DNA of 36,340 nucleotides from Candidatus Poribacteria bacterium (GTDB lineage: Bacteria; Poribacteria; WGA-4E; WGA-3G). This document shows, one piece after another, positions 1 to 36,340 of the stretch. Both the position numbers and the translations under genes were made by a program. Numbering within the stretch: position 1 is the stretch's first letter; each line of letters opens with the position of its first letter. Location of the stretch: NCBI GenBank assembly GCA_022828145.1, contig JAJEJA010000011.1:1-36340 (forward strand), written 5' to 3'. The notes under the pieces are model-generated. The model did not search any database. It saw only the letters and a program-made list of their open reading frames with translations, and was not told the DNA's origin.

Positions 1-222
1 ATGAGGGATGAATGGGTTGGAGGAAGATAGCACAATCAAGGATGTATTTGGCAGAATACGCGTTTGGTATTCTGCATTAAGTTTATCAATAGGGTTGGGT
101 GGGAAGATGGGTAATGATGGATGAAATGGGTTGGAGGAAGATAGCACAATCTAACAGAATGTGCTACAAAGAAGCACAATCTAACAGAATGTGCTACAAA
201 GAAGCACAATCTAACAGAATGT
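1..222. repeat. Dispersed 27-bp repeat plus 30-bp tandem repeats
   Basis: A 27-bp string (containing GGTTGGAGGAAGATAGCAC) occurs identically at 11-37 and 125-151. From 143 a 30-bp unit starting AGCACAATCTAACAGAATGT is repeated at 143-172 and 173-202 and partly at 203-222. Each full unit holds a short inverted repeat, AGCACA and TGTGCT, separated by 11 nt. A relative of this unit lies at 19827-19858. The rest of 223-298 shows nothing recognisable. No gene was found in 1-384. Confidence 0.8.
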
Positions 223-298
223 CTATTATTGGTGAAGGTATTGAAGATTAAGTTACAAAAAGTTTACACACCCGTCAAAATCCAATGTAGTATTAATA

Positions 299-12165: not shown

Positions 12166-12209
12166 AAGAAGAAGTACGTTGCAAATGTAATCTGTTATTT
12201 ACTTGCCCG

Positions 12210-12998
12210 TTACTTACTTGACTTTATTGTACCCCATGTGGTTGATAGTTTTTGACGTGGATCAACAGCTGTTGCCGATTGATAACCGGTTTCCATTTCA
12301 GCAAGGATTTCATCTTCACTGAGTGCCCGGTTCCATATACGCACTTCGTCAATTAGACCGAGGAAACGACGGTTTGCGCCTTCCCCAGTAGTGCCGACAT
12401 AGACAACAGAAGTATCAGCCGTCCCGGGTAATGCATTCATACCACCAAATTCACCGACAGGTTCACCGTTCAGCCAGTATCTATGTGTTCCACTATCAAC
12501 CTGACCGACAACGTGTTGCCATTCGTTGAGAGCGATTTTTCCTGTGCATACACTACCGCTTCCACCTGCACTAAGGTGTAAGCATTCACTTGGTGATTCA
12601 GTGTAGAAACTGTAAGAACGGGGATTATTTCCTTTTGCGAGGATACCTTGCCAACGTTGTTCATTAGGTCCCATGTGTCGTTCTGCATTTATCCATGCCA
12701 TCACCGTTACACTTTCTGTAACAGTCAGGATGTCGTCGTGTGGAACTTCGATCCAATCACTTTCGCCATTAAATTTTAGTGCATTTCCGAACTTACCATC
12801 TACCAACTCAGGTGCCCCAAGAATATTCCCATTATTGCCATATTGTGAATGGTCAATCGTCATATCTCCATCTAACTCATCAAATGAGAAATAGAGGACA
12901 AGCGATTTATCTGCTGATACCTCAGCGTTAGCGAATGGTGTTATGCCAAATGTTATGAACAATGGCATTAGGATTAACACTATAAAAATATACCTCAT
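12210..12998 (-). CDS. Secreted LamG-domain protein, paralogue 1
   Basis: A 262-residue exported protein with a signal peptide (about 1-25, ending NANA-like) and one LamG/concanavalin A-like beta-sandwich (about 30-235). Typical strings are LVLYFSFDELDGD, VTVMAWINAERH, YSFYTESPSECLHLSAGGSGSVCTG, HRYWLNGEPVGE and GLIDEVRIWNRALSEDEI. Such domains bind carbohydrates or proteins outside the cell. The C-terminus VDPRQKLSTTWGTIKSSK is shared with the three tandem paralogues upstream. There is no visible catalytic motif. The upstream region has GGAGGAAAATAAAT before the ATG and is nearly the same as that of paralogue 2. This is the last gene of the array and has diverged from paralogue 2 mainly near the C-terminus (EMETGYQSATA in place of QMDKGHFELFP). 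Confidence 0.88.
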   Translation of the reverse strand: MRYIFIVLILMPLFITFGITPFANAEVSADKSLVLYFSFDELDGDMTIDHSQYGNNGNILGAPELVDGKFGNALKFNGESDWIEVPHDDILTVTESVTVMAWINAERHMGPNEQRWQGILAKGNNPRSYSFYTESPSECLHLSAGGSGSVCTGKIALNEWQHVVGQVDSGTHRYWLNGEPVGEFGGMNALPGTADTSVVYVGTTGEGANRRFLGLIDEVRIWNRALSEDEILAEMETGYQSATAVDPRQKLSTTWGTIKSSK

Positions 12999-13104
12999 AA
13001 TTTATTTTCCTCCAATCATACCGTCTTTGCCATACCAACTATGGCATGCCAAAGTGATACTATTGATTATTAATAGCGATAGATATAAACCTACCGATTT
13101 AGAC
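12999..13104 (-). repeat. Duplicated upstream region of LamG paralogue 1
   Basis: These 106 bp closely match 13891-13998. Shared strings include the ribosome-site stretch (TTTATTTTCCTCCAATCATA on the plus strand), TGCCAAAGTGATACTATTGA, AGCGATAGATATAAA and the CCTATCGTTTTTTAG tail that encodes the C-terminal stop of the next gene. The gene and its leader were therefore duplicated together. Confidence 0.85.
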
Positions 13105-13890
13105 CTATCGTTTTTTAGTTTTTATAATACCCCACGTTGTTGCTAATTTTTGACGTGGGTCAACAGGAAAGAGTTCAAAGTGCCCCTTATCCATCTGATC
13201 AACAATTTCATCTTCTGAGAGTGCCCGGTTCCAAATTCTGACTTCGTCAATTAGACCGAGGAATTCACGATTTCCTTCATGTGTTTTTCCCACTAAAACA
13301 TTTGAAGTATCCGCGTTACCTGGGGGCGGGTTCATTCCAGCGAATTCACCAACATTTTCACCATTTATCCAATACCGGTGAGTTCCATTGTCTACCTGTG
13401 CAGCGACATGTTGCCACTCATTCAACGCAATTTTCCCGGTACAGACGCTTCCGCTTCCCCCAACGCTTAGGTGCATACATTCGCTTGGAGATTCAGTGTA
13501 GAAACTATAAGAACGGGGACTATTACCTTTCGCTACAATCCCTTGCCAACGTTGGTTGTTAGGTCCCATATGTCTTTCTGTATTAATCCAAGCCATGACA
13601 GTTACATCTTTATTAACAGTGAGGATGTCGTCATGTGGTACTTCAACCCAGTCGGTTGAACCGTTAAGTTTGAGTGCTTTACCAAATTTACCATTAGCAA
13701 GTTCGGCGTCACCAACTAATTCACCATTGTTTCCATACTTTGAATGGTCAATCGCTTGATCTCCATCAAGTGAATCAAACGAAAAATAGAGGATCATTGA
13801 CTCCTCTGGTTCAGTTGCCGCCTGCGCGAAAGATGCTACAAACGTTATGAACAATGACGTTAGGATTAACACTATAAAAATATACCTCAT
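13105..13890 (-). CDS. Secreted LamG-domain protein, paralogue 2
   Basis: A 261-residue exported LamG protein with a signal peptide (MRYIFIVLILTSLFITFVASFAQA) whose first ten residues are the same as in paralogue 1. The LamG domain spans about 30-232, with MILYFSFDSLDGDQAIDHSKY, VTVMAWINTERH, CMHLSVGGSGSVCTG and GLIDEVRIWNRALSEDEI. The two Cys around the SGGSGS loop may form a disulfide. The C-terminal stretch from RIWNRALSEDEI through FELFPVDPRQKL to WG and KTKKR is nearly the same as in paralogue 3, while the N-terminus is closer to paralogue 1. That mosaic suggests gene conversion among array members. The start is supported by GGAGG 10 nt upstream. Confidence 0.88.
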   Translation of the reverse strand: MRYIFIVLILTSLFITFVASFAQAATEPEESMILYFSFDSLDGDQAIDHSKYGNNGELVGDAELANGKFGKALKLNGSTDWVEVPHDDILTVNKDVTVMAWINTERHMGPNNQRWQGIVAKGNSPRSYSFYTESPSECMHLSVGGSGSVCTGKIALNEWQHVAAQVDNGTHRYWINGENVGEFAGMNPPPGNADTSNVLVGKTHEGNREFLGLIDEVRIWNRALSEDEIVDQMDKGHFELFPVDPRQKLATTWGIIKTKKR

Positions 13891-13998
13891 AATTTATTTT
13901 CCTCCAATCATACCATCTTTGCCATACTAACAATGGAATGCCAAAGTGATACTATTGATTATTTAATAGCGATAGATATAAATCTACCAATATTAGAC
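13891..13998 (-). repeat. Duplicated upstream region of LamG paralogue 2
   Basis: The partner of the 12999-13104 repeat. It holds the ribosome-binding site of paralogue 2 and joins the 3' end of paralogue 3. No clear promoter with good -35 and -10 spacing was found, so readthrough from paralogue 3 or 4 is possible. Confidence 0.8.
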
Positions 13999-14790
13999 CT
14001 ATCGTTTTTTAGTTTTTATCGTACCCCACGTGGTTGTTAGCTTTTGACGTGGGTCAACAGGAAAGAGCTCGAAATGTCCCTTATCCATCTGATCAGCAAT
14101 TTCATCTTCTGAGAGTGCCCGGTTCCAAATTCTGACTTCGTCAATCATACCGAGTAACCTTCTGCCTGCTCCTTCCGCTGTTGTTCCTATGAATACATTA
14201 GATGTATCAGCTGCACCAGGAAGATTTGTTTTGCCTCCACTCTCACTAACATTTTCACCATTAATAAAATATCGGTGGACACCATCCTCTTGTTGTGCAG
14301 CAACATGAACCCACTCGTTTAAAGGGATTGGCGTGTTACATGTACTGCCTGAGAAACCCCCTGAAGGGCCAACGGAGAAGTGTAAACACTGCGTTGGTAA
14401 ATGTGTATAGAAACTGTAAGAACGTTGACTATTTCCTTTGGCAACGATTCCTTGCCAATTTACACCACCAGGACCGGAATGTCTTTCAACATTTATCCAA
14501 GCCATGACGGTGACATCCTTGTCAACTGTGAGTGATTCGTGATGTGGGATTTCAACCCAATCGGATTCTCCATCAAATTGCAGTGCTTTGCCGTGTTTGC
14601 CATTAACATGATCTGGATCTCCCATCAAATCACCCGTGTTTCCGTATCTTGAATGGTCAATTGTTTGATCTCCATCAAGGGAATCAAAAGAGACATAAAG
14701 GATCATTGATTCCTCTGGTTCCGTTACCGCCTGAGCAAAACAGGCTCCAAGCGTTAAAAGTATTGTTGCTAATATTATATGTTGTTTCAT
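13999..14790 (-). CDS. Secreted LamG-domain protein, paralogue 3
   Basis: A 263-residue exported LamG protein. The signal peptide is MKQHIILATILLTLGACFAQA; the Cys near its end could allow lipoprotein processing, but GACF is not a strong lipobox. The LamG domain (about 27-235) contains MILYVSFDSLDGDQTIDHSRY, VTVMAWINVERH, CLHFSVGPSGGFSGSTC, HRYFINGENV and GMIDEVRIWNRALSEDEI. It ends VDPRQKLTTTWGTIKTKKR like its neighbours. Its N-terminus differs from paralogues 1 and 2, while its 3' end and the following spacer match paralogue 2. A GGGGGAAGAAGT stretch precedes the ATG. Likely an extracellular carbohydrate- or protein-binding protein without a catalytic domain. Confidence 0.88.
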   Translation of the reverse strand: MKQHIILATILLTLGACFAQAVTEPEESMILYVSFDSLDGDQTIDHSRYGNTGDLMGDPDHVNGKHGKALQFDGESDWVEIPHHESLTVDKDVTVMAWINVERHSGPGGVNWQGIVAKGNSQRSYSFYTHLPTQCLHFSVGPSGGFSGSTCNTPIPLNEWVHVAAQQEDGVHRYFINGENVSESGGKTNLPGAADTSNVFIGTTAEGAGRRLLGMIDEVRIWNRALSEDEIADQMDKGHFELFPVDPRQKLTTTWGTIKTKKR

Positions 14791-14896
14791 ACTTCTTCCC
14801 CCAATAATTTGGTATTAATTTCTCTGCATGTTTATACAAATAGCATTGCTAAAATACAGGAATCTATGTATTGACGAATTGATTTACTCGTCAGTA

Positions 14897-15682
14897 TTAT
14901 CTGAATTTAGACTTTAGGCTACCCCATGTGGTAGATAATTTCTGGTCTGGATCAACAGCGAAAATCTCAAAGTGTCCTTTATTCATCTGTTGATTAACCT
15001 CTTCTTCCGAGAGTGCTCGGTTCCAGATACGGACTTCATCAATCATTCCAAGGAAATATCGGATATTCCCTCCGCCTGCTGTGCCTATGACAACTGGATT
15101 GGTATCCTCTAACCCAGGCGGGTTCGGTTTGTTGCCGATTTCTCCAACCTTCTGTCCGTTTAACCAATAACGGTGCGTGCCATCATTAAACTGTGCAGCA
15201 ACATGTTGCCATGCGTTTAGCGCAACTTCACCATTGCAAACACTGCCGCCACCAGCTGGTGGACCTACACTTAGATGTAGACATTTACTGTTTGACTCTG
15301 TCCAGAGACTATAGGAACGAGGATTGTTTCCTTTTGCCATGATACCTTGCCATCTGGCATTATCAGGACCTTCATGCCTAACTGCATGAATCCAAGCCAT
15401 GATGGTGAAATCCTCATCCACCGTGAGGGATTCATGGTGTGGTATTTCCACATAAGTATCCTGACCGTTGAATTTGAGAGCTTTGCCAAATTTACCATCA
15501 ACGTGTTCTGGGTCTCCCTTCAATTCGCCATGATTTTCATATTTTGAATGGTCGTTCATCTGTTCTCCATTGACCGTATCAAAAGACATGTAAAGGATGA
15601 GTGTATCCTCTGGTTCATTTGCTGCAAATGCGACAGGTAACCCAAACATGATAAGGACACATATCATAGAAAAATGTTTCAT
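14897..15682 (-). CDS. Secreted LamG-domain protein, paralogue 4
   Basis: A 261-residue exported LamG protein and the most diverged of the four. The signal peptide is MKHFSMICVLIMFGLPVAFA. The domain (about 25-232) holds LILYMSFDTVNGEQMNDHSKY, FTIMAWIHAVRH, CLHLSVGPPAGGGSVCNG, HRYWLNGQKVGE and GMIDEVRIWNRALSEEEV. The C-terminus VDPDQKLSTTWGSLKSKFR keeps the array's common ending. It begins 14 bp after the stop of the FG-GAP/ASPIC gene, so it is probably cotranscribed with the tatA-CMD-TPR-ASPIC run. No strong ribosome site is visible. It may be the oldest copy, from which the others arose, though that is inference. Confidence 0.88.
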   Translation of the reverse strand: MKHFSMICVLIMFGLPVAFAANEPEDTLILYMSFDTVNGEQMNDHSKYENHGELKGDPEHVDGKFGKALKFNGQDTYVEIPHHESLTVDEDFTIMAWIHAVRHEGPDNARWQGIMAKGNNPRSYSLWTESNSKCLHLSVGPPAGGGSVCNGEVALNAWQHVAAQFNDGTHRYWLNGQKVGEIGNKPNPPGLEDTNPVVIGTAGGGNIRYFLGMIDEVRIWNRALSEEEVNQQMNKGHFEIFAVDPDQKLSTTWGSLKSKFR

Positions 15683-19779: not shown

Positions 19780-19920
19780 GGCAGGATGAATGCTTGGAAG
19801 GGTGGAAGGTTGGATGTGTATGTATAAAGAAGCACAATCAAGGATGAATGTGCTACAACCCTATCAAGATTTTGCTGTTTGGAGAGGGGTAATGAAGGAT
19901 GAATGTGCTACAGCACTATC
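19780..19920. repeat. Dispersed short repeat related to 1-222
   Basis: At 19827-19858 AGCACA and TGTGCT flank 12 nt, as in the tandem units at 143-222. The segment AAGGATGAATGTGCTACA recurs at 19894-19911 with small differences. The gene-free span 19247-20035 therefore holds this repeat, the GTACC cluster and the promoter at 19961; nothing else was recognised in it. Confidence 0.65.
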
Positions 19921-19960
19921 ATGGGTTTACTTTTCCCTTTGACAAACGTTTCTAATTTGG

Positions 19961-21019: not shown

Positions 21020-21035
21020 TGAGGGTTTATGAGTA

Positions 21036-21186
21036 ACGTGAGTTTGATAAATCAGAACAAATAACTACGTAGGTTGGGTTGAGGAACGAAACCCAACATT
21101 TTGACCCATTATAGAGCAATACATGTCGGGTTTCGTTCCTCTACCCGACCTACAACGCATATTGCATTTAATTATCAAACTCACGT
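21036..21186. mobile_element. MITE-like element, family A copy 1, nested palindrome
   Basis: 151 bp with terminal inverted repeats ACGTGAGTTTGATAA (left) and TTATCAAACTCACGT (right). TATGAGTA stands immediately on both sides, an apparent 8-bp target duplication. Inside is a second inverted repeat: GTAGGTTGGGTTGAGGAACG near the left and CGTTCCTCTACCCGACCTAC near the right. No coding capacity, so it would be non-autonomous. Confidence 0.7.
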
Positions 21187-21203
21187 TATGAGTAGGAAAA
21201 AAC

Positions 21204-22505
21204 ATGCATAAAGAGATACGAGAGAAGTTTATTGAACAGATGGAATCTGGCAGCGTTGCGATCTTTACTAACGCACCTACTGCTATGCGGAATCATGATA
21301 CGGAACACATCTATAATCCTGATCCAAATTTTTTCTATCTAACAGGTTTTGAGGAGCAGGAATCAATCTGTGTGATCGCACCCGATCATCCGAAACATAA
21401 ATATGTCTTGTTTGTACTACCGAAAGACAAAAGGTCGGAGATTTGGGATGGTAAAAGAGTCGGTGTTAAAGATGCATGCAAGAAATATGGTGCGGATAAA
21501 GCATATCCGATTGACAAATTTAAAAAACATATTGGGCAATTCCTCAAAGATGCTGAAAAGTTGTATTACACCCTCGGTTCGAATTCTCATATTGATGCTG
21601 AAATCCTTTCACGTTTTAAGCAAGCAGTCAGATCGCGCGTTCGAACCGGACAGGGAATTCATATACTCGTTGATCCGAGTCCAATTCTCAGTGAAATGCG
21701 ATTAATTAAAAATGGAGAGGAATTGCAAAGAATTAGAAAAGCGTGTGATATTACAGTAGATGGTCATATCGCTGCAATGACCGCAGCAAAACCTGGCATG
21801 TATGAGTATGCGTTAGAGGCATACATTGATGCGACTTTCCGTAGCAGTGGCGCAAACGGTACAGCTTTTCCAACTATTGTCGCAAGCGGTGGGAATGCAA
21901 CGACACTCCATTATCGGACTAACGACTGTCAGATAAAGGATGATACGCTTGTTCTGATTGATGCAGGGGCAGAATATCAACGGTACTGTGGAGACGTCAC
22001 TCGGACTTTTCCTGTCAACGGTAGATTCACTGAAGCACAGAAAGAGATATATCAACTTGTGCTTGATGCGCATTATGAGATTATCAATACAATTCGTCCG
22101 GGTGTATCTATTGATGAACCCCATCAGAAATCTATTGAGTTACTAACTGAGGGGATGCTCAGTCTGGGTTTACTAAAAGGTAAAGCGAAAAAAATTATAG
22201 AGAAAGAGAAATACAAACAGTTCTATATGTATCGTGTGGGACACATGCTTGGATTGGATGTCCATGATGTCAACTGTGTTAGGAAGTCAGAGGAGGAGTA
22301 CAAGACGTTTGAACCGGGGATGGTAATGACAATTGAACCGGGATTGTATGTTGCAGAAGGCACGAAGAAAGTTCCCAAAAAATACCTCGGAATCGGTGTG
22401 CGTATTGAAGATGATATCCTCGTAACTGAATCCGGTTATGAAGTGTTGACTGATGCTGTGCCAAAAGAGATTGATGCTATCGAGGAGCTCATGAACCCTT
22501 CATAG
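21204..22505 (+). CDS. pepP: Xaa-Pro aminopeptidase (M24B)
   Basis: A 433-residue aminopeptidase P that removes an N-terminal residue preceding proline, in the cytoplasm. Residues 1-165 form the N-terminal creatinase-like domain (NPDPNFFYLTGF), and 170-430 the pita-bread catalytic domain. All five metal ligands of the M24 family can be placed: Asp253 (LIDAGAEY), Asp264 (CGDVTRTFP), His347 (RVGHMLGLDVHD), Glu378 (MTIEPGLY) and Glu402 (GVRIEDDILVT). The length is normal. It starts 17 bp after MITE copy 1, so the element lies in its 5' leader, and TAGGAA precedes the ATG. The gene symbol is given by resemblance to E. coli pepP. Confidence 0.95.
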   Translation: MHKEIREKFIEQMESGSVAIFTNAPTAMRNHDTEHIYNPDPNFFYLTGFEEQESICVIAPDHPKHKYVLFVLPKDKRSEIWDGKRVGVKDACKKYGADKAYPIDKFKKHIGQFLKDAEKLYYTLGSNSHIDAEILSRFKQAVRSRVRTGQGIHILVDPSPILSEMRLIKNGEELQRIRKACDITVDGHIAAMTAAKPGMYEYALEAYIDATFRSSGANGTAFPTIVASGGNATTLHYRTNDCQIKDDTLVLIDAGAEYQRYCGDVTRTFPVNGRFTEAQKEIYQLVLDAHYEIINTIRPGVSIDEPHQKSIELLTEGMLSLGLLKGKAKKIIEKEKYKQFYMYRVGHMLGLDVHDVNCVRKSEEEYKTFEPGMVMTIEPGLYVAEGTKKVPKKYLGIGVRIEDDILVTESGYEVLTDAVPKEIDAIEELMNPS

Positions 22506-22514
22506 CAGTTAAAC

Positions 22515-22690
22515 TTGTAGGTCGGGTAGATTGTAGGTCGGGTAGAGCGAAGCGCCAATAAAATATTAACTGGCGACAAATGCCAAAAGTGCATTTGGCG
22601 TTGATTTGGACATGATAGACACAATCCTTACGTGTCGGGTTTCGTTCCTCTACCCGACCTACATATTTAGTCTGGATTATCCAATAGTCG
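22515..22690. repeat. Palindromic repeat block before the ECF sigma gene
   Basis: A 16-bp unit, TTGTAGGTCGGGTAGA, is doubled at 22515-22546. Its inverse TCTACCCGACCTAC is at 22649-22662, closing a hairpin of about 130 nt. A smaller stem, TGCCAAA/TTTGGCG, lies inside. The right arm matches the inner palindrome of family A copy 1. The next bases TACATATTTAGTCTGGA (22660-22676) recur at 23513-23529. No gene is present in 22506-22802. Confidence 0.7.
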
Positions 22691-22750
22691 TAGCAGAAAT
22701 CCTTGAAGATAGAATAACGAAATTGAAGTTGAAGAAAAAACAGTGAAGAA

Positions 22751-22779
22751 TTCACAATTCTAATGCAACAGAATATATA
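22751..22779 (+). promoter_or_regulatory. Promoter of the ECF sigma gene
   Basis: TTCACA (22751-22756), 17 nt, TATATA (22774-22779), 23 nt before the ATG at 22803. This resembles a sigma70 promoter; an ECF-type GAACTT-like -35 was not seen, so autoregulation is not evident. Confidence 0.45.
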
Positions 22780-22802
22780 ACATCTGCACCAGGTGGAACT
22801 AT

Positions 22803-23360
22803 ATGATACCAGATGATGTCTATGTGCATAAAACTGTAGAGGGTGATGTTGAGGCATTTAACGAGTTGGTCAATCGTCACCACAGCAAAATATACGGTCT
22901 TGCTTATCGCATGCTTGGGAATTCCGAAGATGCTCAAGATGCTACGCAGGAGACGTTTTTGGAAGCTTACAAGTCAATTAAGTCGTTTCGCTTTCAATCA
23001 CAGTTTGGCACGTGGTTGTATAAAGTTGGTTTGAACACTTGCAATCAGATTATTAGGAAAGCGAAATCACGCAACCGAATGATGGATGCCTATACCGAAG
23101 AGAAGTCTGTACGCGGTATGACAGAGACACGCGAGATTCCTGAACGGTTGGCGATTAAAGCTGAACAGCGTGAATTGGTGCAAGCCGCTATCGACCGACT
23201 ACCACCGAAGCAGAAAGAAGTTGTAACCCTTTTTTATATGCAACATCTTAAATATAAGGAGATCGCTGAAATACTTGACTGCTCTATCGGTACAGTTGCC
23301 TCACGATTAAATAAAGCGATGCAGAATCTCAAAGTGAAGTTAGAAAAACACTACTATTGA
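22803..23360 (+). CDS. ECF RNA polymerase sigma factor
   Basis: A 185-residue sigma70-family ECF factor. Region 2 (about 20-90) shows FNELVNRHHSKIYGLAYRMLGNSEDAQDATQETFLEAYKSI and FRFQSQFGTWLYKVGLNTCNQIIRKAK; region 4 (about 122-182) shows LPPKQKEVVTLFYMQHLKYKEIAEILDCSIGTVASRLNKAMQNLK, the helix-turn-helix that reads the -35 element. No region 3 is present, as expected. It directs core RNA polymerase to a small regulon, probably of envelope stress or surface genes. A zinc-binding anti-sigma gene follows, but 196 bp of palindromic repeat separate the two, unusually far for such a pair. An AGGTGG stretch precedes the ATG. Confidence 0.96.
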   Translation: MIPDDVYVHKTVEGDVEAFNELVNRHHSKIYGLAYRMLGNSEDAQDATQETFLEAYKSIKSFRFQSQFGTWLYKVGLNTCNQIIRKAKSRNRMMDAYTEEKSVRGMTETREIPERLAIKAEQRELVQAAIDRLPPKQKEVVTLFYMQHLKYKEIAEILDCSIGTVASRLNKAMQNLKVKLEKHYY

Positions 23361-23390
23361 AGATTTGCCGTACTATCGTGGGCGTAATGT

Positions 23391-23541
23391 AACTATTGGA
23401 TTGTCAATTCTAATATTGTGTGTATCATCAATAGTCGAGAATCGGCCAGAAATATGTTAATTGGCCTCCTACAGAACTGAGTATTGGTAGGAGCGATCTC
23501 CGAATCGCGACTTACATATTTAGTCTGGACTGTCCACTATT
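23391..23541. mobile_element. MITE-like element, family B, between sigma and anti-sigma genes
   Basis: The ends are imperfect inverted repeats: ACTATTGGATTGTCAATTCT on the left; on the right AGTCTGGACTGTCCACTATT. Inside are three hairpins: GGCCA/TGGCC, CTCCTAC/GTAGGAG and GCGAT/ATCGC. The segment TACATATTTAGTCTGGA is shared with 22660-22676. It ends a few bases before the ribosome site of the anti-sigma gene. Boundaries are approximate. Confidence 0.55.
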
Positions 23542-23556
23542 ATAGCGAGGAGTGTT

Positions 23557-24240
23557 ATGATGAATTGTGAACAAGCTCGTGAGTATTTGGTCCTACACCA
23601 ACCAGATTCTGAGTTGAAAGGGACGAAACGGAGCGAATTTTTTAAACACTTGCGGGTGTGCCATAGTTGCCAAATAGAATATGAAGGTTTATTGCATACT
23701 GCTGAAGTCATTGGAAACCTTGAAACACCGGAACCTCCACCCGAATTACTGACTAATATTCAGGCTCAAATACGCGAAATAGATAAGCGGAGTCGGACCG
23801 CAATGTTTGCCAGTCCATTCTCATGGGTGTTCGGCAAGTTTAAGTTAGAACTATCTCCGCAGATCGTTAATTGTACTGCCCTGGTCTGCTATGTACTTGC
23901 CTCAGCATTCTTGTTGAAATTTGCGTTTTTTACTGAGGTAAAGGAGGATAGTCTCGGTTTGACTGCTTTTCAAGAAGCTCGGTTGCGAAATGTCCGGGTT
24001 TCACCTTCACCCTGGGCAACGTTGAAACACCAAGATGTACGAGATGAAAGCGAATCGTCCACGAATGTAACCACCGAGGGTTTTTTTACTCCTTCAGATC
24101 AATCTATTGGAATTAAGATGGAGGAAATATGGTACTCCAATACAGTAAATGACGGTACAGACACAGGTGATGGTCGTTTTATTAACGATGCAAATGTTAA
24201 ACTCACACTATTTTGGAGCGACATCAAGACAGAACTGTAA
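23557..24240 (+). CDS. Zinc-binding transmembrane anti-sigma factor
   Basis: A 227-residue membrane protein with an N-terminal zinc-binding anti-sigma (ZAS) domain: Cys4, then His31, Cys35 and Cys38 in HLRVCHSC give the HX3CX2C signature. A single membrane segment spans about 107-127 (NCTALVCYVLASAFLLKFAFF), so the N-terminal domain is cytoplasmic and holds the sigma factor while about 100 residues lie outside and may sense the signal. The outer part is not recognised. The start ATG at 23557 is followed by a second ATG, with GAGGAG just upstream. It is placed after the ECF gene and ends before a strong terminator at 24306-24339, closing this unit. Confidence 0.9.
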   Translation: MMNCEQAREYLVLHQPDSELKGTKRSEFFKHLRVCHSCQIEYEGLLHTAEVIGNLETPEPPPELLTNIQAQIREIDKRSRTAMFASPFSWVFGKFKLELSPQIVNCTALVCYVLASAFLLKFAFFTEVKEDSLGLTAFQEARLRNVRVSPSPWATLKHQDVRDESESSTNVTTEGFFTPSDQSIGIKMEEIWYSNTVNDGTDTGDGRFINDANVKLTLFWSDIKTEL

Positions 24241-24305
24241 GGAGGAGAATAAAGAAGTTTATATCTCAACTTGGTCATATTATCCTACATATCTTATTAA
24301 CCTAT

Positions 24306-24339
24306 AAAAAAGAGGTGCAATGTTTTGCACCTCTTTTTT
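24306..24339. terminator. Strong intrinsic terminator after the sigma/anti-sigma unit
   Basis: A 15-bp perfect stem (AAAAAAGAGGTGCAA with TTGCACCTCTTTTTT) around a 4-nt loop, ending in a T run. The A-rich left arm makes it usable in both directions. It lies 65 bp after the anti-sigma stop. Confidence 0.9.
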
Positions 24340-24383
24340 ATGGTCTATCGTAGGCTTGTATGGGTCACCATAGAGTCGTTATT

Positions 24384-24452
24384 TTAAATTCATTGCGGAC
24401 ATTGTATATTTACGCTAAAATAGATGCACATACTCCCAGATTTAACATGACA
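24384..24452 (+). promoter_or_regulatory. Duplicated promoter/leader, copy 1, before the WD40-dockerin gene
   Basis: TTGCGG (24393-24398), 17 nt, TAAAAT (24416-24421). The whole 69-bp stretch, through GATGCACATACTCCCAGATT, recurs at 25861-25929 with few differences, before the ABC transporter genes. Both copies end shortly before a start region. Confidence 0.65.
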
Positions 24453-24531
24453 ACAAAGAGACAATACATTCAAAAATTGTGAAGGTATTGAAATGCCCAA
24501 ATTAATATACTTTAAAAAAGGAGATTATCTG

Positions 24532-25734
24532 ATGATAACGAAACTATCTATGTTTGTATCGCTTCTGTTAGCGACATTTATTTTTACGTCCACAACATTT
24601 GCACAACAAGTCTCGGACTGGGCTCAACCGAACGAAATATACAGCAGCACCATCCCAGAAAATGAAAATGACTTAGATAGACATCAATCACCTATTCATA
24701 GCGTAGTGTTTAGTCCGGATGGAAAAACCATTGCAAGTGGAAGTAGTGACAGAAACATCCGTCTATGGAATGCAAACGATGGTAAACATATAAGAACACT
24801 TTATCAACCTGAGTCTGGGGCCGGAGCAGTCTACTCCGTAGCGTTTAGTCCTGATAGTACAATTGTGGCAGGTGGAAGTGTGGACAGAGCCATACGTCTA
24901 TGGAACGTAAACGATGGTATACTCATACATGGTTTAATAGGAGATACGACGGGAGAAGTACTGACTATAGTATTTAGTCCTGATGGAAAAACCATTGCAA
25001 GTGGAAGTACCGACACAAACATACGCTTGTGGAATGTAAACGATGGAACACACATACGTACCATTTCTGGACACACAAGAAGAATCCAAGAGATTGTTTT
25101 TAGTCCAGATGGTTCAATCCTTGTGAGCGCAGGTGATGACAGAACCATACGTCTATGGTACGCAAACGATGGTTCACATTTACTGACAATTGCAGATGAC
25201 AGAATAGGTTTTCCTTACTCTGTTGCAATTAGTCCTGATGGAAGCACCATTGCATGTGGGAATGCCGAATCTACCATCAGTCTGTGGAACATATTTGACG
25301 GGTCACACATACGAACGCTTCACGGACATACGATGGCTGTTAACAGTGTAACATTTAGTCCAGATGGAACGGTCATTGCCAGTGGGGGAGACGACACTAC
25401 CATCCGCTTGTGGAATAGCGGTGATGGCATGCACATACGAACTCTTGAAGGACATAAAGATAAGGTATTTAGTATTGCGTTTAGTCCGAATGGAAAAACT
25501 ATTGTAAGTGGAAGTGAAACTACAATTCGGCATTGGTCAGTCGCGCCACCACCAGAACCCCCACAACTTAAAGAAGACATCAACGGTGATGGTAGAGTCA
25601 ACGTGCTTGATTTAGTCTTAGTTGGTAGGAACTTCGGTGCGACAGGTGAAAATCCAGCGGATGTGAATGGTGATGGTACGGTTAATGTGTTGGATTTAGT
25701 GTTAGTCGGCGGTGCTATTGGTAAAACCGTATAA
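24532..25734 (+). CDS. Exported WD40 beta-propeller with C-terminal dockerin
   Basis: The ATG at 24532 is chosen (400 residues): AAAGGAG lies 8 nt upstream and a signal peptide follows (MITKLSMFVSLLLATFIFTSTTFAQQ); an ATG at 24493 has no good ribosome site. Seven WD40 repeats (about 48-342) form one complete seven-bladed propeller, with repeated FSPDGKTIASGS and TIRLWN strings. After a PPPEPPQ linker the last ~58 residues form a type I dockerin: DINGDGRVNVLDLVLVGRNF and DVNGDGTVNVLDLVLVGGAI, two F-hand calcium loops. A dockerin binds cohesin modules, and a cohesin protein is encoded at 31097-33400. There is no catalytic domain. Likely an extracellular interaction protein held on a scaffold. 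Confidence 0.95.
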   Translation: MITKLSMFVSLLLATFIFTSTTFAQQVSDWAQPNEIYSSTIPENENDLDRHQSPIHSVVFSPDGKTIASGSSDRNIRLWNANDGKHIRTLYQPESGAGAVYSVAFSPDSTIVAGGSVDRAIRLWNVNDGILIHGLIGDTTGEVLTIVFSPDGKTIASGSTDTNIRLWNVNDGTHIRTISGHTRRIQEIVFSPDGSILVSAGDDRTIRLWYANDGSHLLTIADDRIGFPYSVAISPDGSTIACGNAESTISLWNIFDGSHIRTLHGHTMAVNSVTFSPDGTVIASGGDDTTIRLWNSGDGMHIRTLEGHKDKVFSIAFSPNGKTIVSGSETTIRHWSVAPPPEPPQLKEDINGDGRVNVLDLVLVGRNFGATGENPADVNGDGTVNVLDLVLVGGAIGKTV

Positions 25735-25742
25735 TCTAAATA

Positions 25743-25861
25743 ACGTGAGTTTGATAAATCAAATTTTCGTATTTGAGAGGCGTGAATTGTAGCACAAACT
25801 TTCAGTTTGTGGCACATCTTCGCAAACTGGAAAGTTTGCGCTACATTTATCAAACTCACGT
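25743..25861. mobile_element. MITE-like element, family A copy 2, different cargo
   Basis: 119 bp with the same terminal repeats as copy 1 (ACGTGAGTTTGATAAAT and its inverse). TAAATA stands on both sides, an apparent 6-bp target duplication. The inner palindrome is unlike copy 1: GTAGCACAAACTTTCAGTTT on the left and AAACTGGAAAGTTTGCGCTA on the right. It ends only 8 bp before the -35 box of the promoter copy at 25870. Confidence 0.7.
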
Positions 25862-25929
25862 TAAATACATTTCGGACATTGTACATTTACGCTAAAATAG
25901 ATGCACATACTCCCAGATTCAAGATGACA
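25861..25929 (+). promoter_or_regulatory. Duplicated promoter/leader, copy 2, before the OppD-type gene
   Basis: TTTCGG (25870-25875), 17 nt, TAAAAT (25893-25898), within a 69-bp stretch that matches 24384-24452. A GGGGGAGAG ribosome site follows at about 25930-25938. Confidence 0.6.
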
Positions 25930-33520: not shown

Positions 33521-36340
33521 TTGAACAAACTCAAGTACATCACACCTATCTGTTTTGTGTTATTCCTTTGCATTGTCAGTAGTGGCACTGTTTTTGCTTT
33601 TTCATTTAATCCACCGGATGGGAAGACGGGGGCTCCTAATGAAAGCACTTGTGCCGAATGCCATAGCGGTAACAGCTTGAACGCTGCCGGAGGTTCTCTA
33701 CTGTTGACAGTGCCTAAAACTTATGAACCCGGAGAGGTATATGATATAGTCGTTAAGTTATCCCGAAATAGTCAAAGACGATGGGGATTTCAGATGACAG
33801 CTCTAAATGCAAATAACGTAAGCGCAGGTTCTTTTACCACTATAGATGCAAATACACAATTGAGTCCTGACAACAAATACATTGAACATACTGCTACGGG
33901 AACTGCTCAAGGTACACCTAACATGCACAGTTGGATGTTTAAATGGACTGCACCAGCTAACGATGTAGGTGCTATTACCTTTTATGCTGCAGGGAACGCT
34001 GCAAACAGTGCTGATGGAGCAAGTGGTGATTATATCTATACCCAATCAGCGACATCCGAAGTTCCTTATCACGGTGTTGCGCTACAAGGTGTCGGTAATT
34101 TGACAAGACAAACGGCTGATGCAAGTAGCGGAATAAGGTATACAGTTCAGGTAAGGAACACTGGGAACATTTCCGATACGATTGGTCTAACGACATCAGG
34201 CGATGTAAGTGCTACATTAAGCCGAAACACAGTATCTCTTGCTGCGGGTGCTGCCACTAATGTGACAGTTTCTATTCCAGGTTCAGCACTTACGGCTGCA
34301 GGTGAATACGATGTTAGTGTCAATGCAACTTCACAAGGGGATTCCACAAAAACCGCTGCGATAACGACAACTACAACAATCCTTCCTGTATATAGCATTT
34401 CGTTAGCAGGTGTCGGAGCTTTAACAACGGAAACATCGGATGCAAGTGCTGGGGTCAGTTATCGGGTGCGCGTCACTAACAATGGTAACACGCGCGATAC
34501 AATTCGTTTGACAACATCTGGTGATGTTAATGCTACTGTAAGTTCAAGCTCTATAACCTTAAATCGAGGTTCTTCTCGCACAGTAACCTTGAGGATATCA
34601 GGTACTGCTCTTACTGCAGCGGGTGAATATGAAGTAAAATTTAAGGCTACTTCACAGGGGGATGATACAATAACGTCTGAGATTTCAACGACTACGACTA
34701 TCCTACCTGTCTACGATATTTCGTTAGCGGGTGTAGGAGCTTTAGCGAGTGAAACCTCTGATGGCAGTGATGGTGTTGTTTATACACTAAGTATCACGAA
34801 CAATGGTAATACGGCTGATGTGATTGACCTATCGGCTTCAGGTGATGCTGATGCTACACTGAGTGCTGAGTCTGTATCCCTTGCCTCTGGTGCTTCTGAG
34901 GAAGTGACATTGACAATCTCTGCTGATGGTCTGATGCTTGCGGATGTGTATGAAGTAAAAGTTTCTGGTATTTCGCAAGGTGATAACACAAAGACTGTTG
35001 AAATATCAACGACCACGACTATCCTACCTGTTTACGGATTTTCAATAGTGGGTGTAGGATCTTTAGAGAGTGAGACCTCTGATGGCAGTGATGGTGTTGC
35101 CTATATGTTCACGATTACGAATGAGGGTAATACGAATGATGTGATTGATCTATCAACATCTGGTGATGCTGATGCGACACTGAGTGCGGAATCTGTATCG
35201 CTTGCCTCTGGTGCTTCCGAGGAAGTGACATTAACAATTTCTGCTGATGGTCTGATGCTTGCGGGTGCTTATGAAGTAAAAGTTACAGCAACCTCACAAG
35301 GTGATGATACAATAGCCCCTGTGTTGACAACGACCACGACTATTCTGCCTGTCTATGATATTTCGTTGGCAGGTGTAGGATCTTTAGCGAGTGAAATATC
35401 TGATGCCGGTGATGGTGTTGTCTATAAGCTGAGTATCACGAATAATGGTAATACGACTGATGTGATTGCTTTATCAACATTGGGTGATGCTGATGCGACA
35501 CTGAGTGCGGAATCTGTATCTCTTACCTCTGGTGCTTCAGAGGAAGTGACACTGACAGTCTCTGGTGCTGGTCTTATGCTTGCGGGTGTGTATGAAGTAA
35601 AAGTTACGGCAACCTCACAAGGTGACGCTACAAAAACATCTGAGATTTCAACGATCACGACTATCCTACCTGTCTACGGATTTTCAATAGAGGGTGTGGG
35701 AGATTTGGAGCGTGAGACCTCTGATGGCAGTGCTGGCGTTGTTTATACACTAAGTATCACGAACAATGGTAATACGGCTGATGTGATTGACTTATCGGCT
35801 TCAGGTGGTGCTGATGCTACACTGAGTACAGAATCTGTCTCGCTTGCCTCTGGTGCTTCAGAGGAAGTGACATTGACAATCTCTGGTGATGGTCTAATGC
35901 TTGCGGGTGCTTATGAAGTAAAAGTTTCTGGTATATCGCAAAATGATGACTCAAAGACTGCTGAGATTACAACGACTACGACTATCCTGCCTGTCTACGG
36001 ATTTTCAATAGAGGGTGTGGGAGATTTGGAGCGTGAGACCTCTGATGGCAGTGCTGGCGTTGTTTATACACTAAGTATCACGAACAATGGTAATACGGCT
36101 GATGTGATTGCTTTATCAACATCAGGTGATGCTGATGCTACACTGAGTGCGGAATCTGTATCTCTTGCCTCTGGTGCTTCAGAGGAAGTGACATTGACAA
36201 TCTCTGCTGATGGTCTGATGCTTGCGGGTGCTTATGAAGTAAAAGTTTCTGGTATTTCGCAAGGTGATAACACAAAGACTGTTGAAATATCAACGACTAC
36301 GACTATCCTACCTGTTTACGGATTTTCAATAGCGGGTATA
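33521..36340 (+). CDS. Large repeat surface protein with CxxCH-containing N-terminal domain (3' end beyond window)
   Basis: The frame is open from TTG 33521 to the window end (940 codons, no stop); AAGGAG is 5 nt before the TTG, and a signal peptide follows (LNKLKYITPICFVLFLCIVSSGTVFA). Residues about 28-180 match the choice-of-anchor V/reelin-like domain, beginning PPDGKTGAPNESTCAECHSG; the CAECH could bind heme, though in this family it is a conserved opening motif. From about 182 the protein is a chain of 107-residue Ig-like units of the NEW3/CARDB type, each with NGNTADVI, LASGASEEVTLTIS and TTTTILPVY. Seven whole units and part of an eighth are visible. Probably a long adhesin or S-layer-like fibre. 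Anchoring and full length are unknown. Confidence 0.88.
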   Translation, partial: MNKLKYITPICFVLFLCIVSSGTVFAFSFNPPDGKTGAPNESTCAECHSGNSLNAAGGSLLLTVPKTYEPGEVYDIVVKLSRNSQRRWGFQMTALNANNVSAGSFTTIDANTQLSPDNKYIEHTATGTAQGTPNMHSWMFKWTAPANDVGAITFYAAGNAANSADGASGDYIYTQSATSEVPYHGVALQGVGNLTRQTADASSGIRYTVQVRNTGNISDTIGLTTSGDVSATLSRNTVSLAAGAATNVTVSIPGSALTAAGEYDVSVNATSQGDSTKTAAITTTTTILPVYSISLAGVGALTTETSDASAGVSYRVRVTNNGNTRDTIRLTTSGDVNATVSSSSITLNRGSSRTVTLRISGTALTAAGEYEVKFKATSQGDDTITSEISTTTTILPVYDISLAGVGALASETSDGSDGVVYTLSITNNGNTADVIDLSASGDADATLSAESVSLASGASEEVTLTISADGLMLADVYEVKVSGISQGDNTKTVEISTTTTILPVYGFSIVGVGSLESETSDGSDGVAYMFTITNEGNTNDVIDLSTSGDADATLSAESVSLASGASEEVTLTISADGLMLAGAYEVKVTATSQGDDTIAPVLTTTTTILPVYDISLAGVGSLASEISDAGDGVVYKLSITNNGNTTDVIALSTLGDADATLSAESVSLTSGASEEVTLTVSGAGLMLAGVYEVKVTATSQGDATKTSEISTITTILPVYGFSIEGVGDLERETSDGSAGVVYTLSITNNGNTADVIDLSASGGADATLSTESVSLASGASEEVTLTISGDGLMLAGAYEVKVSGISQNDDSKTAEITTTTTILPVYGFSIEGVGDLERETSDGSAGVVYTLSITNNGNTADVIALSTSGDADATLSAESVSLASGASEEVTLTISADGLMLAGAYEVKVSGISQGDNTKTVEISTTTTILPVYGFSIAGI
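34067..36340 (+). repeat. Exact 321-bp tandem repeats (7+ units)
   Basis: Unit boundaries taken at the V of ILPVY fall at 34388, 34709, 35030, 35351, 35672, 35993 and 36314, each 321 bp apart; an earlier diverged unit begins at about 34067. Units 3-7 are the most alike, with shared blocks such as GSDGVVYTLSITNNG and SGASEEVTLTIS. The window ends inside unit 8. Confidence 0.97.

What the first reader, a model, noticed from the sequence alone, without database searches (positions are those of the whole stretch)
21036..25861. Same terminal repeats enclosing different palindromic cargos
Elements at 21036-21186 and 25743-25861 share ACGTGAGTTTGATAA ends, yet their interiors are unrelated palindromes. 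The first interior (GTAGGTCGGG-like arms with GAGGAACGAAACCC) also occurs alone at 22515-22662 without those ends. Each element is flanked by a direct repeat (TATGAGTA, 8 bp; TAAATA, 6 bp). This suggests layered non-autonomous elements, where one palindrome inserts into another or where end-sequences capture new cargo. I do not know a described family with this structure.
Basis: partly seen in the sequence, partly recalled or inferred. Interest (0 to 1): 0.7.

Follow-up and report, generated by a model that had tools for sequence, protein, structure and literature searches.

The report
REPIN hairpins riding inside IS982 MITEs
In a bacterium of the Poribacteria group (judged by its named relatives), the ends of one family of jumping genes enclose several unrelated families of hairpin repeats that are also found beside a second kind of jumping gene, giving short two-layer elements that are likely moved around the genome by enzymes supplied from elsewhere.

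Summary
The ends ACGTGAGTTTGATAA occur 376 times (up to 2 mismatches; reversed control 17) in the window's genome and are the ends of ~1.0-kb IS982-family insertion sequences in relatives. In an unselected 0.69-Mb sample, all 20 complete elements carry GTAG-tagged hairpins of three REP families (18 of 20 with a tag at each side, the REPIN layout); 15 of 20 have 6-8 bp target duplications; 11 of 14 tested sites are uninterrupted in at least one relative. The REP families also lie beside three groups of RAYT or RAYT-like transposase genes, so the two layers belong to different machineries. One 65-bp copy has both ends and its duplication but lacks the GTAG..CTAC unit. The palindrome seen 'alone' at 22515-22662 sits in a second, TA-flanked end family, which carries two REP families. 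Ends and cargo thus combine modularly. Precedents: QMITE2 of Coxiella and Anabaena REP dimers inside longer palindromes. New here: both kinds of cognate transposase, several cargos per end family, two end families per cargo, a cargo-less copy. Mobility in trans and the capture route are inferred; no intact IS982 transposase was found in the window's own assembly. New variant of a known kind.

The parts
21036..21186 (.). Element 1: IS982-type MITE, 151 bp, class A REPIN inside
   Evidence: 15-bp ends exact; precise empty site in G013
21028..21035 (.). target duplication TATGAGTA, left copy (right copy 21187-21194)
   Evidence: sequence; single copy in G013
21069..21153 (.). class A REPIN: GTAGGTTGGGTT.. 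and ..CCCGACCTAC inverted pair
   Evidence: sequence; same REPs beside RAYT genes
25743..25861 (.). Element 2: IS982-type MITE, 119 bp, class B REPIN inside
   Evidence: ends exact; the same 119-bp type at L126 9159 has uninterrupted counterparts in G013 and G006
25737..25742 (.). target duplication TAAATA, left copy (right copy 25862-25867)
   Evidence: sequence
25789..25844 (.). class B REPIN: GTAGCACAAACTTTCAGTTTGTG.. / ..CGCTAC
   Evidence: sequence; same motif beside Y1 transposase genes in relatives
22508..22686 (.). Element 3: class A REPIN in the second (TA-flanked) end family; left end truncated
   Evidence: right end TTTAGTCTGGATTATCCAA then TA; absent from G006 and G013, where the intergenic region is diverged
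23394..23539 (.). Element 4: class E REPs (GTAGGAG..) in the TA-flanked end family, TA at both borders
   Evidence: precise empty site with one TA in G006 and G013

Best explanation
Each element is bounded by the 15-bp ends of IS982-family insertion sequences and carries inside it an inverted pair of GTAG hairpins of the kind found beside RAYT genes, so it is likely moved as a miniature transposon by an IS982 transposase acting in trans, while its inner hairpin pair (a REPIN) was likely first mobilised by a RAYT. Shown: same ends as coding IS982 elements of relatives, target duplications, empty sites, several REP families per end family, the same REPs beside RAYT or RAYT-like genes, and one copy without the REPIN. 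Inferred: a REPIN came to lie between two IS982 ends on a few occasions (at least four sets of inner arms: A, B-long/short, D, C), and each capture was then amplified as a unit through the outer ends, landing at AT-rich TA...TA sites, mostly between genes. A second, TA-duplicating end family (IS630-like by its target; transposase not found) has done the same with REP families A and E. Recombination between REPs then occasionally shuffles arms (hybrid L045).
For: Copy number 376 vs 17 control. IS982 elements: L052 331-1342, 1012 bp, 301-aa transposase, NF033520 232.9 bits (cut-off 130) and PF13612; relatives at E 1e-20 or better in 28 of 58 family genomes; 13 of the 18 loci examined have an end within 3 mismatches of the 15-mer on both sides, 1006-1027 bp apart, TSD of 6 bp or more in 8 of 13. 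Unselected sample of 688,821 bp: 20 real elements, TSD 6-8 bp in 15, cargo A 5, B 14, C 1; GTAG and CTAC both present in 18 of 20. Duplication termini read TA in 88 of 100. Empty sites: element 1 exact in G013; 11 of 14 sample sites spanned by one match in at least one genus relative, gap-free or within 1 bp at the joint in six (L113, L118, L121, L124, L125, L139). RAYT link: own C83 gene is NF047646 203 bits (cut-off 80) and matches 4er8 TnpArep at 1.7e-40, with class A REPs on both sides; 11 of 11 loci of that RAYT group carry class A motifs, against 2 of the other 19 loci; class C or C-like motifs beside L107, L276, L278, L280, L281, L285; class B motifs three or more times in 4 of 40 further Y1 loci. 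REPIN-less 65-bp copy with TSD TACCATA at C59:24776-24840. Second end family: 13 elements, 7 with A and 6 with E; TA duplication shown by one empty site.
Against: No intact IS982 transposase in the window's assembly (94.3% complete): only a truncated copy and a degenerate gene without these ends; 0 matches with the L052 protein at 1e-20. REPINs are not required: 8 elements read in G004 and G008 (141-541 bp) have other interiors, 5 without any GTAG or CTAC and 3 with one isolated tetranucleotide. The cargo-less element is one copy in 57 genomes searched with exact ends; it also lacks 2 bp of the right arm, and TAC repeats at the REPIN borders make slippage possible. The Y1 genes beside class B REPs score 52-63 bits, below the RAYT cut-off of 80, and 29 of 40 such loci have no class B motif. 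Class B and C REPs have no partner near the three Y1 genes seen in the own genome. Class C is mostly not in these ends: 1 of 19 motifs lies near an IS982-type end. 5 of 20 sample elements lack a long TSD; 3 of 14 sites (L122 7155, L135, L145) gave no spanning match, and in G006 the L113 site holds about 160 bp with class E REPs and no IS982-type end.
Confidence: 0.8

Rival explanations
1. The hairpins are simply the MITE's own interior, and free-standing REPs are truncated MITEs, as proposed for QMITE2 of Coxiella.
For: Unpaired or truncated copies exist here too: 15 unpaired ends in the sample, 6 of them within 140 bp of a contig end. PMC5896051 (passages) reads small QMITE2 copies as REPs.
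Against: The same REPs flank RAYT genes in genomes of two genera; class A REPs also sit in an unrelated TA-type end family, and 16 of 56 are near neither end type; class E never lies near an IS982-type end (0 of 35).
Confidence: 0.1
2. Cargo exchange is driven by homologous recombination between REPs or between ends, not by RAYT insertion or by capture during transposition.
For: Hybrid L045 (class C left arm + class A REPIN and right arm); one of 7 class C elements with a class B-short arm motif; RAYT-side REPIN joined to a class A right arm and end at L101/L258.
Against: Both arms are the usual ones in 33 of 36 class A elements, so exchange looks rare; it does not by itself explain the missing GTAG..CTAC unit at C59.
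Confidence: 0.25
3. The elements are kept because the hairpins act as terminators or mRNA stabilisers between genes; the repeated ends are incidental.
For: 2 of 22 elements lie mostly inside an ORF of 100 aa or more, at 85.7% ORF coverage by a crude ORF call; 8 of the 18 with a neighbour on each side start within 17 bp after a forward ORF; strong folding of elements 1 and 2 (-38.5 and -33.5 vs -11.7 and -11.4 kcal/mol for shuffles).
Against: Insertion at AT-rich sites plus selection against gene hits gives the same pattern; most of the orthologous sites tested are empty in a relative (11 of 14).
Confidence: 0.1

Closest known systems
QMITE2 of Coxiella burnetii (PMC5896051; passages read, and PMC10969869 passages)
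   Same: 150-190 bp MITE with TIRs and 7-11 bp variable direct repeats, containing a GTAG REP
   Different: one cargo; no parent IS named in the passages read and the word RAYT absent from the text; REPs read as truncated MITEs. Here one end family carries three REP families and both kinds of transposase are found
Anabaena variabilis GTAG-15 dimers inside long palindromes (PMC3733652; abstract, sections 5, 7 and 16 read)
   Same: REP dimers enclosed in a longer inverted repeat (TATAGGA..TCCTATA)
   Different: no TSD, IS or second cargo reported in that section; target palindromes without REPs were not found there, whereas one cargo-less copy exists here
MITE of Cardinium likely derived from the IS982-family ISCca4 (PMC9769881; passages read)
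   Same: MITE with IS982-family ends
   Different: about 240 bp and likely derived from its parent IS; no REPIN mentioned in the passages read
REPINs of Pseudomonas fluorescens SBW25 (PMC3116915; passages read)
   Same: inverted REP doublets linked to RAYTs; excised REPINs seen in reads
   Different: not described as enclosed in IS ends in the passages read

Membership tests
IS982-family MITE (outer layer) | terminal inverted repeats shared with a coding IS982 element | tested here: met
   15-bp ends identical to those of L052/L070
IS982-family MITE (outer layer) | direct target duplication (size range of the IS982 family recalled, not from a call) | tested here: met
   5-9 bp in 50 of 69 end pairs; 6-8 bp in 8 of 13 coding IS
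IS982-family MITE (outer layer) | no transposase gene inside | tested here: met
   65-191 bp, apart from L008 with a chance end at 287 bp
IS982-family MITE (outer layer) | moved in trans by the IS982 transposase | not testable with these tools
   no intact source gene found in the own assembly
REPIN (inner layer) | inverted pair of GTAG-tagged hairpins | tested here: met
   GTAG and CTAC both present in 60 of 69 elements and 18 of 20 in the sample; class C often has a single hairpin
REPIN (inner layer) | same REP beside a RAYT gene | tested here: met
   A in the own genome and relatives; C in relatives only; B only beside Y1 genes of relatives that score below the RAYT cut-off, so for B inconclusive
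REPIN (inner layer) | RAYT-dependent excision or insertion | not testable with these tools
   one REPIN-less copy is compatible
IS630-type MITE (second end family) | TA target duplication (recalled as the IS630 hallmark) | tested here: met
   element 4 empty site; TA at both borders in 10 of 13 elements, found with a pattern that itself contains TA
IS630-type MITE (second end family) | shares ends with a coding IS630 element | tested here: inconclusive

The most novel reading that the evidence does not exclude
Poribacteria run a modular, two-transposase system: REPINs are exchangeable cargo that hop in and out of MITE frames by RAYT, while the frames (IS982-type and TA-type) give each REPIN family a DDE-transposase mobility that RAYTs alone do not, so REPIN spread becomes independent of the cognate RAYT.
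Probability: 0.3. Interest if true: 0.75.

Novelty: new variant of a known kind. Interest (0 to 1): 0.52.

Why it matters
REPINs are generally thought to depend on a cognate RAYT, often single-copy (recalled). If unrelated DDE transposases also carry them inside MITE frames, REPIN abundance, spread and loss can be uncoupled from the RAYT, which is testable in these genomes. It also offers a concrete reading for REP dimers noted inside longer palindromes in cyanobacteria (PMC3733652) and for the REP inside QMITE2 of Coxiella (PMC5896051).

Tried and rejected
A coding source IS in the window's own genome: not found. Quoting class proportions from all 69 end pairs was rejected: 7 loci (L291-L297) were fetched because they match element 1, and others come from the first 100 listed places, so proportions are quoted from the unselected sample only. 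The 502-bp pair at L145 16273 (next to the RAYT) was dropped as a chance pair; L008 (287 bp) stayed among the 69 although its left end is a chance match. Two TA-type pairs of the 15 (L130 19283, spurious; L138 6, composite) were dropped before the count of 13. The 138-bp element L145 3560, unclassified by the first motif, was counted as B after reading it. An empty site for element 2 could not be tested: the WD40 gene that it adjoins is missing in G006 and G013. The script stopped at L088, so 18 of 30 loci (L070-L087) were examined for IS ends. Element 4 folds weakly (z -2.3), so folding was not used for all elements. REPIN-less class A in relatives: 25 hits, all at 2 mismatches, against 49 for the reversed control; I read six of them (L232, L238, L242, L245, L246, L251) and saw no IS982-type end in the stretches printed. 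The own genome had 2 hits (0 and 1 mismatch) and 2 control hits.
Full report
Observation. Their 15-bp ends are exact; the direct repeats are TATGAGTA and TAAATA. In the 5.06-Mb genome (123 contigs, 94.3% complete; the window is contig C116) the end pattern occurs 376 times with up to 2 mismatches against 17 for the reversed pattern, and 314 against 0 with up to 1. All 18 genomes of the genus have hits, 11 to 314; the sister genus g2 has hits; g3 and other families of the order have 0-4 and the ten class-level genomes 0. Most record titles of the IS relatives name Candidatus Poribacteria; that Poribacteria live in sponges is from an abstract listed (PMC3909097), not from these records.

Outer layer. 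In relative G011 the same ends, 1012 bp apart, enclose an intact 301-aa transposase that is IS982 family by NF033520 (232.9 bits, cut-off 130) and PF13612. Relatives of it occur in 28 of 58 family genomes at E 1e-20 or better. Of 18 such loci examined, 13 have an end within 3 mismatches of the 15-mer on both sides, 1006-1027 bp apart; 8 of these 13 have duplications of 6-8 bp. The window's genome shows only a truncated copy (about its first 125 bp, at C1) and a degenerate IS982 gene without these ends. Six of 15 unpaired ends in the sample lie within 140 bp of a contig end, so collapsed repeats may hide IS copies; this is inference.

In an unselected sample (first 20 kb or less of contigs C49-C88; 688,821 bp) there are 20 real complete elements; 15 have duplications of 6-8 bp, 4 share 2 bp and 1 none; 1.9% of mismatched flank pairs reach 5 bp. 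Over the 69 end pairs held, 50 have 5-9 bp, with TA at 88 of 100 duplication termini. Element 1 is absent from G013 with one TATGAGTA left and flanks 91-93% identical, and absent from G006. For 14 sample elements, joined flanks were searched in the genus: 11 of 14 have a single match across the joint in at least one relative (L113, L118, L121, L122 14758, L124, L125, L126, L128, L132, L139, L142), 3 do not (L122 7155, L135, L145). At the joint six are gap-free or within 1 bp, the other five have small gaps. In G006 the L113 site holds about 160 bp with class E REPs and no IS982-type end.

Inner layer. Each of the 20 sample elements carries GTAG-tagged hairpins: A (GTAGGT[C/T]GGG) 5, B (GTAGC.CAAACT and variants) 14, C (GGTAGGT[T/G]CGG) 1; 18 of 20 have both GTAG and CTAC, two only CTAC. 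This is the layout of GTAG REPs and REPINs (PMC3733652 sections 5, 7, 16; PMC3116915 passages). The own genome has a RAYT at C83 (NF047646 203 bits; PDB 4er8 TnpArep) with class A REPs on both sides. In 30 RAYT loci of the family, 11 of 11 of that RAYT group carry class A motifs and 2 of the 19 others carry one. Class C or C-like motifs lie beside other RAYTs (L107; L276, L278, L280, L281, L285). Class B motifs lie beside further Y1 genes: 11 of 40 loci have one, 4 (L307, L310, L315, L331) have three or more; those four genes score 52-63 bits against the RAYT cut-off of 80, so they are RAYT-like only. A 230-aa Y1 gene at own C27 is flanked by yet another GTAG family. So inner cargo and outer ends appear to belong to different transposases.

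Separability. A 65-bp copy at C59:24776-24840 has both exact ends and the duplication TACCATA; it equals class A without the GTAG..CTAC unit, apart from 2 bp missing in the right arm. It is the only element with exact ends and a 20-50 bp interior in 57 genomes. A second left half without REPIN is at C87:18231. Either a REPIN inserted into such a frame, or it left; TAC repeats at its borders leave slippage possible.

Modularity. Both usual arms are found in 33 of 36 class A elements; two have one recognised arm, and one (L045) has a class C left arm; one of 7 class C elements has a B-short arm motif. Class B REPINs occur in three arm sets (17, 4 and 4 elements). In G004 and G008 the same ends hold other interiors, some without REPs. 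Element 4 of the window (23394-23539) has an exact empty site with one TA in G006 and G013, the target hallmark of IS630-type elements (recalled). No coding partner was found in the loci held. Of 56 class A motifs in the sample, 18 lie within 170 bp of an IS982-type end, 22 of a TA-type end and 16 of neither; of 37 class B, 35 near an IS982-type end (one also near a TA-type end) and 2 near neither; of 19 class C, 1, 3 and 15; of 35 class E, 22 near a TA-type end, 13 near neither and none near an IS982-type end; of 64 of a further family F, 1, 4 and 59; random positions 3.6% and 11%. So the enclosure holds for A, B and E, not for C and F.

Mechanism. Most likely a REPIN came to lie between two IS982 ends a few times, and each cassette was then amplified through the outer ends by an IS982 transposase in trans; recombination between REPs occasionally reshuffles arms. 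Sites are AT-rich and mostly outside ORFs. Element 1 folds strongly as a single strand (-38.5 against a shuffle mean of -11.7 kcal/mol), so an effect on transcripts is possible but untested.

What is known. No paper of the library holds both REPIN and IS982. Searches gave these nearest cases: QMITE2, Anabaena GTAG-15 dimers in palindromes, the Cardinium IS982 MITE. Subscription journals are largely missing from that library. The system is therefore a new variant of known kinds, with a cross-phylum hint that REPINs in MITE frames recur.

Noticed in passing
window 24384-24452 and 25861-25929: 69-bp direct repeats (93%) enclose the WD40-repeat gene 24493-25734 and element 2; the gene is missing in G006 and G013, which have one diverged copy of the repeat start.
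   Followed up: partly
window 3-232 and 19805-19930: Another repeat family (GCACAATC..GAATGTGCTAC) like the GTAG repeats that flank the 230-aa Y1 transposase gene at own contig C27.
   Followed up: partly
L101 / L258 (own C83) and L265 (G028 C84): RAYT genes with class A REPs have an IS982-type end next to the neighbouring REPIN, without the other end: a possible capture site or a recombination scar.
   Followed up: partly
L132 2058, L143 18042 and 18351: Free class C REPs are followed by a recurring ATAGGCGTCAATTTA-like arm, perhaps a third enclosing family.
   Followed up: no
L359 (G006 C151) near 200-350: At the orthologue of the L113 8388 insertion site, G006 has a class E REP pair instead of the IS982-type element.
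   Followed up: partly
L145 near 3700 and many places in G016, G010, G014, G004: A ~133-bp inverted-repeat element (CAGGACTTACGCA..TGCGTAAGTCCTGA) at high copy in several genus genomes.
   Followed up: no
window 12201-15682: Four tandem paralogous genes on the minus strand, 895-909 bp apart.
   Followed up: no
window 34175-36340: 321-bp tandem repeat, at least six copies, reaching the contig end.
   Followed up: no
G004 L054-L056: Same IS982-type ends around 376-541 bp elements with a run of G or C, not REP-like.
   Followed up: no
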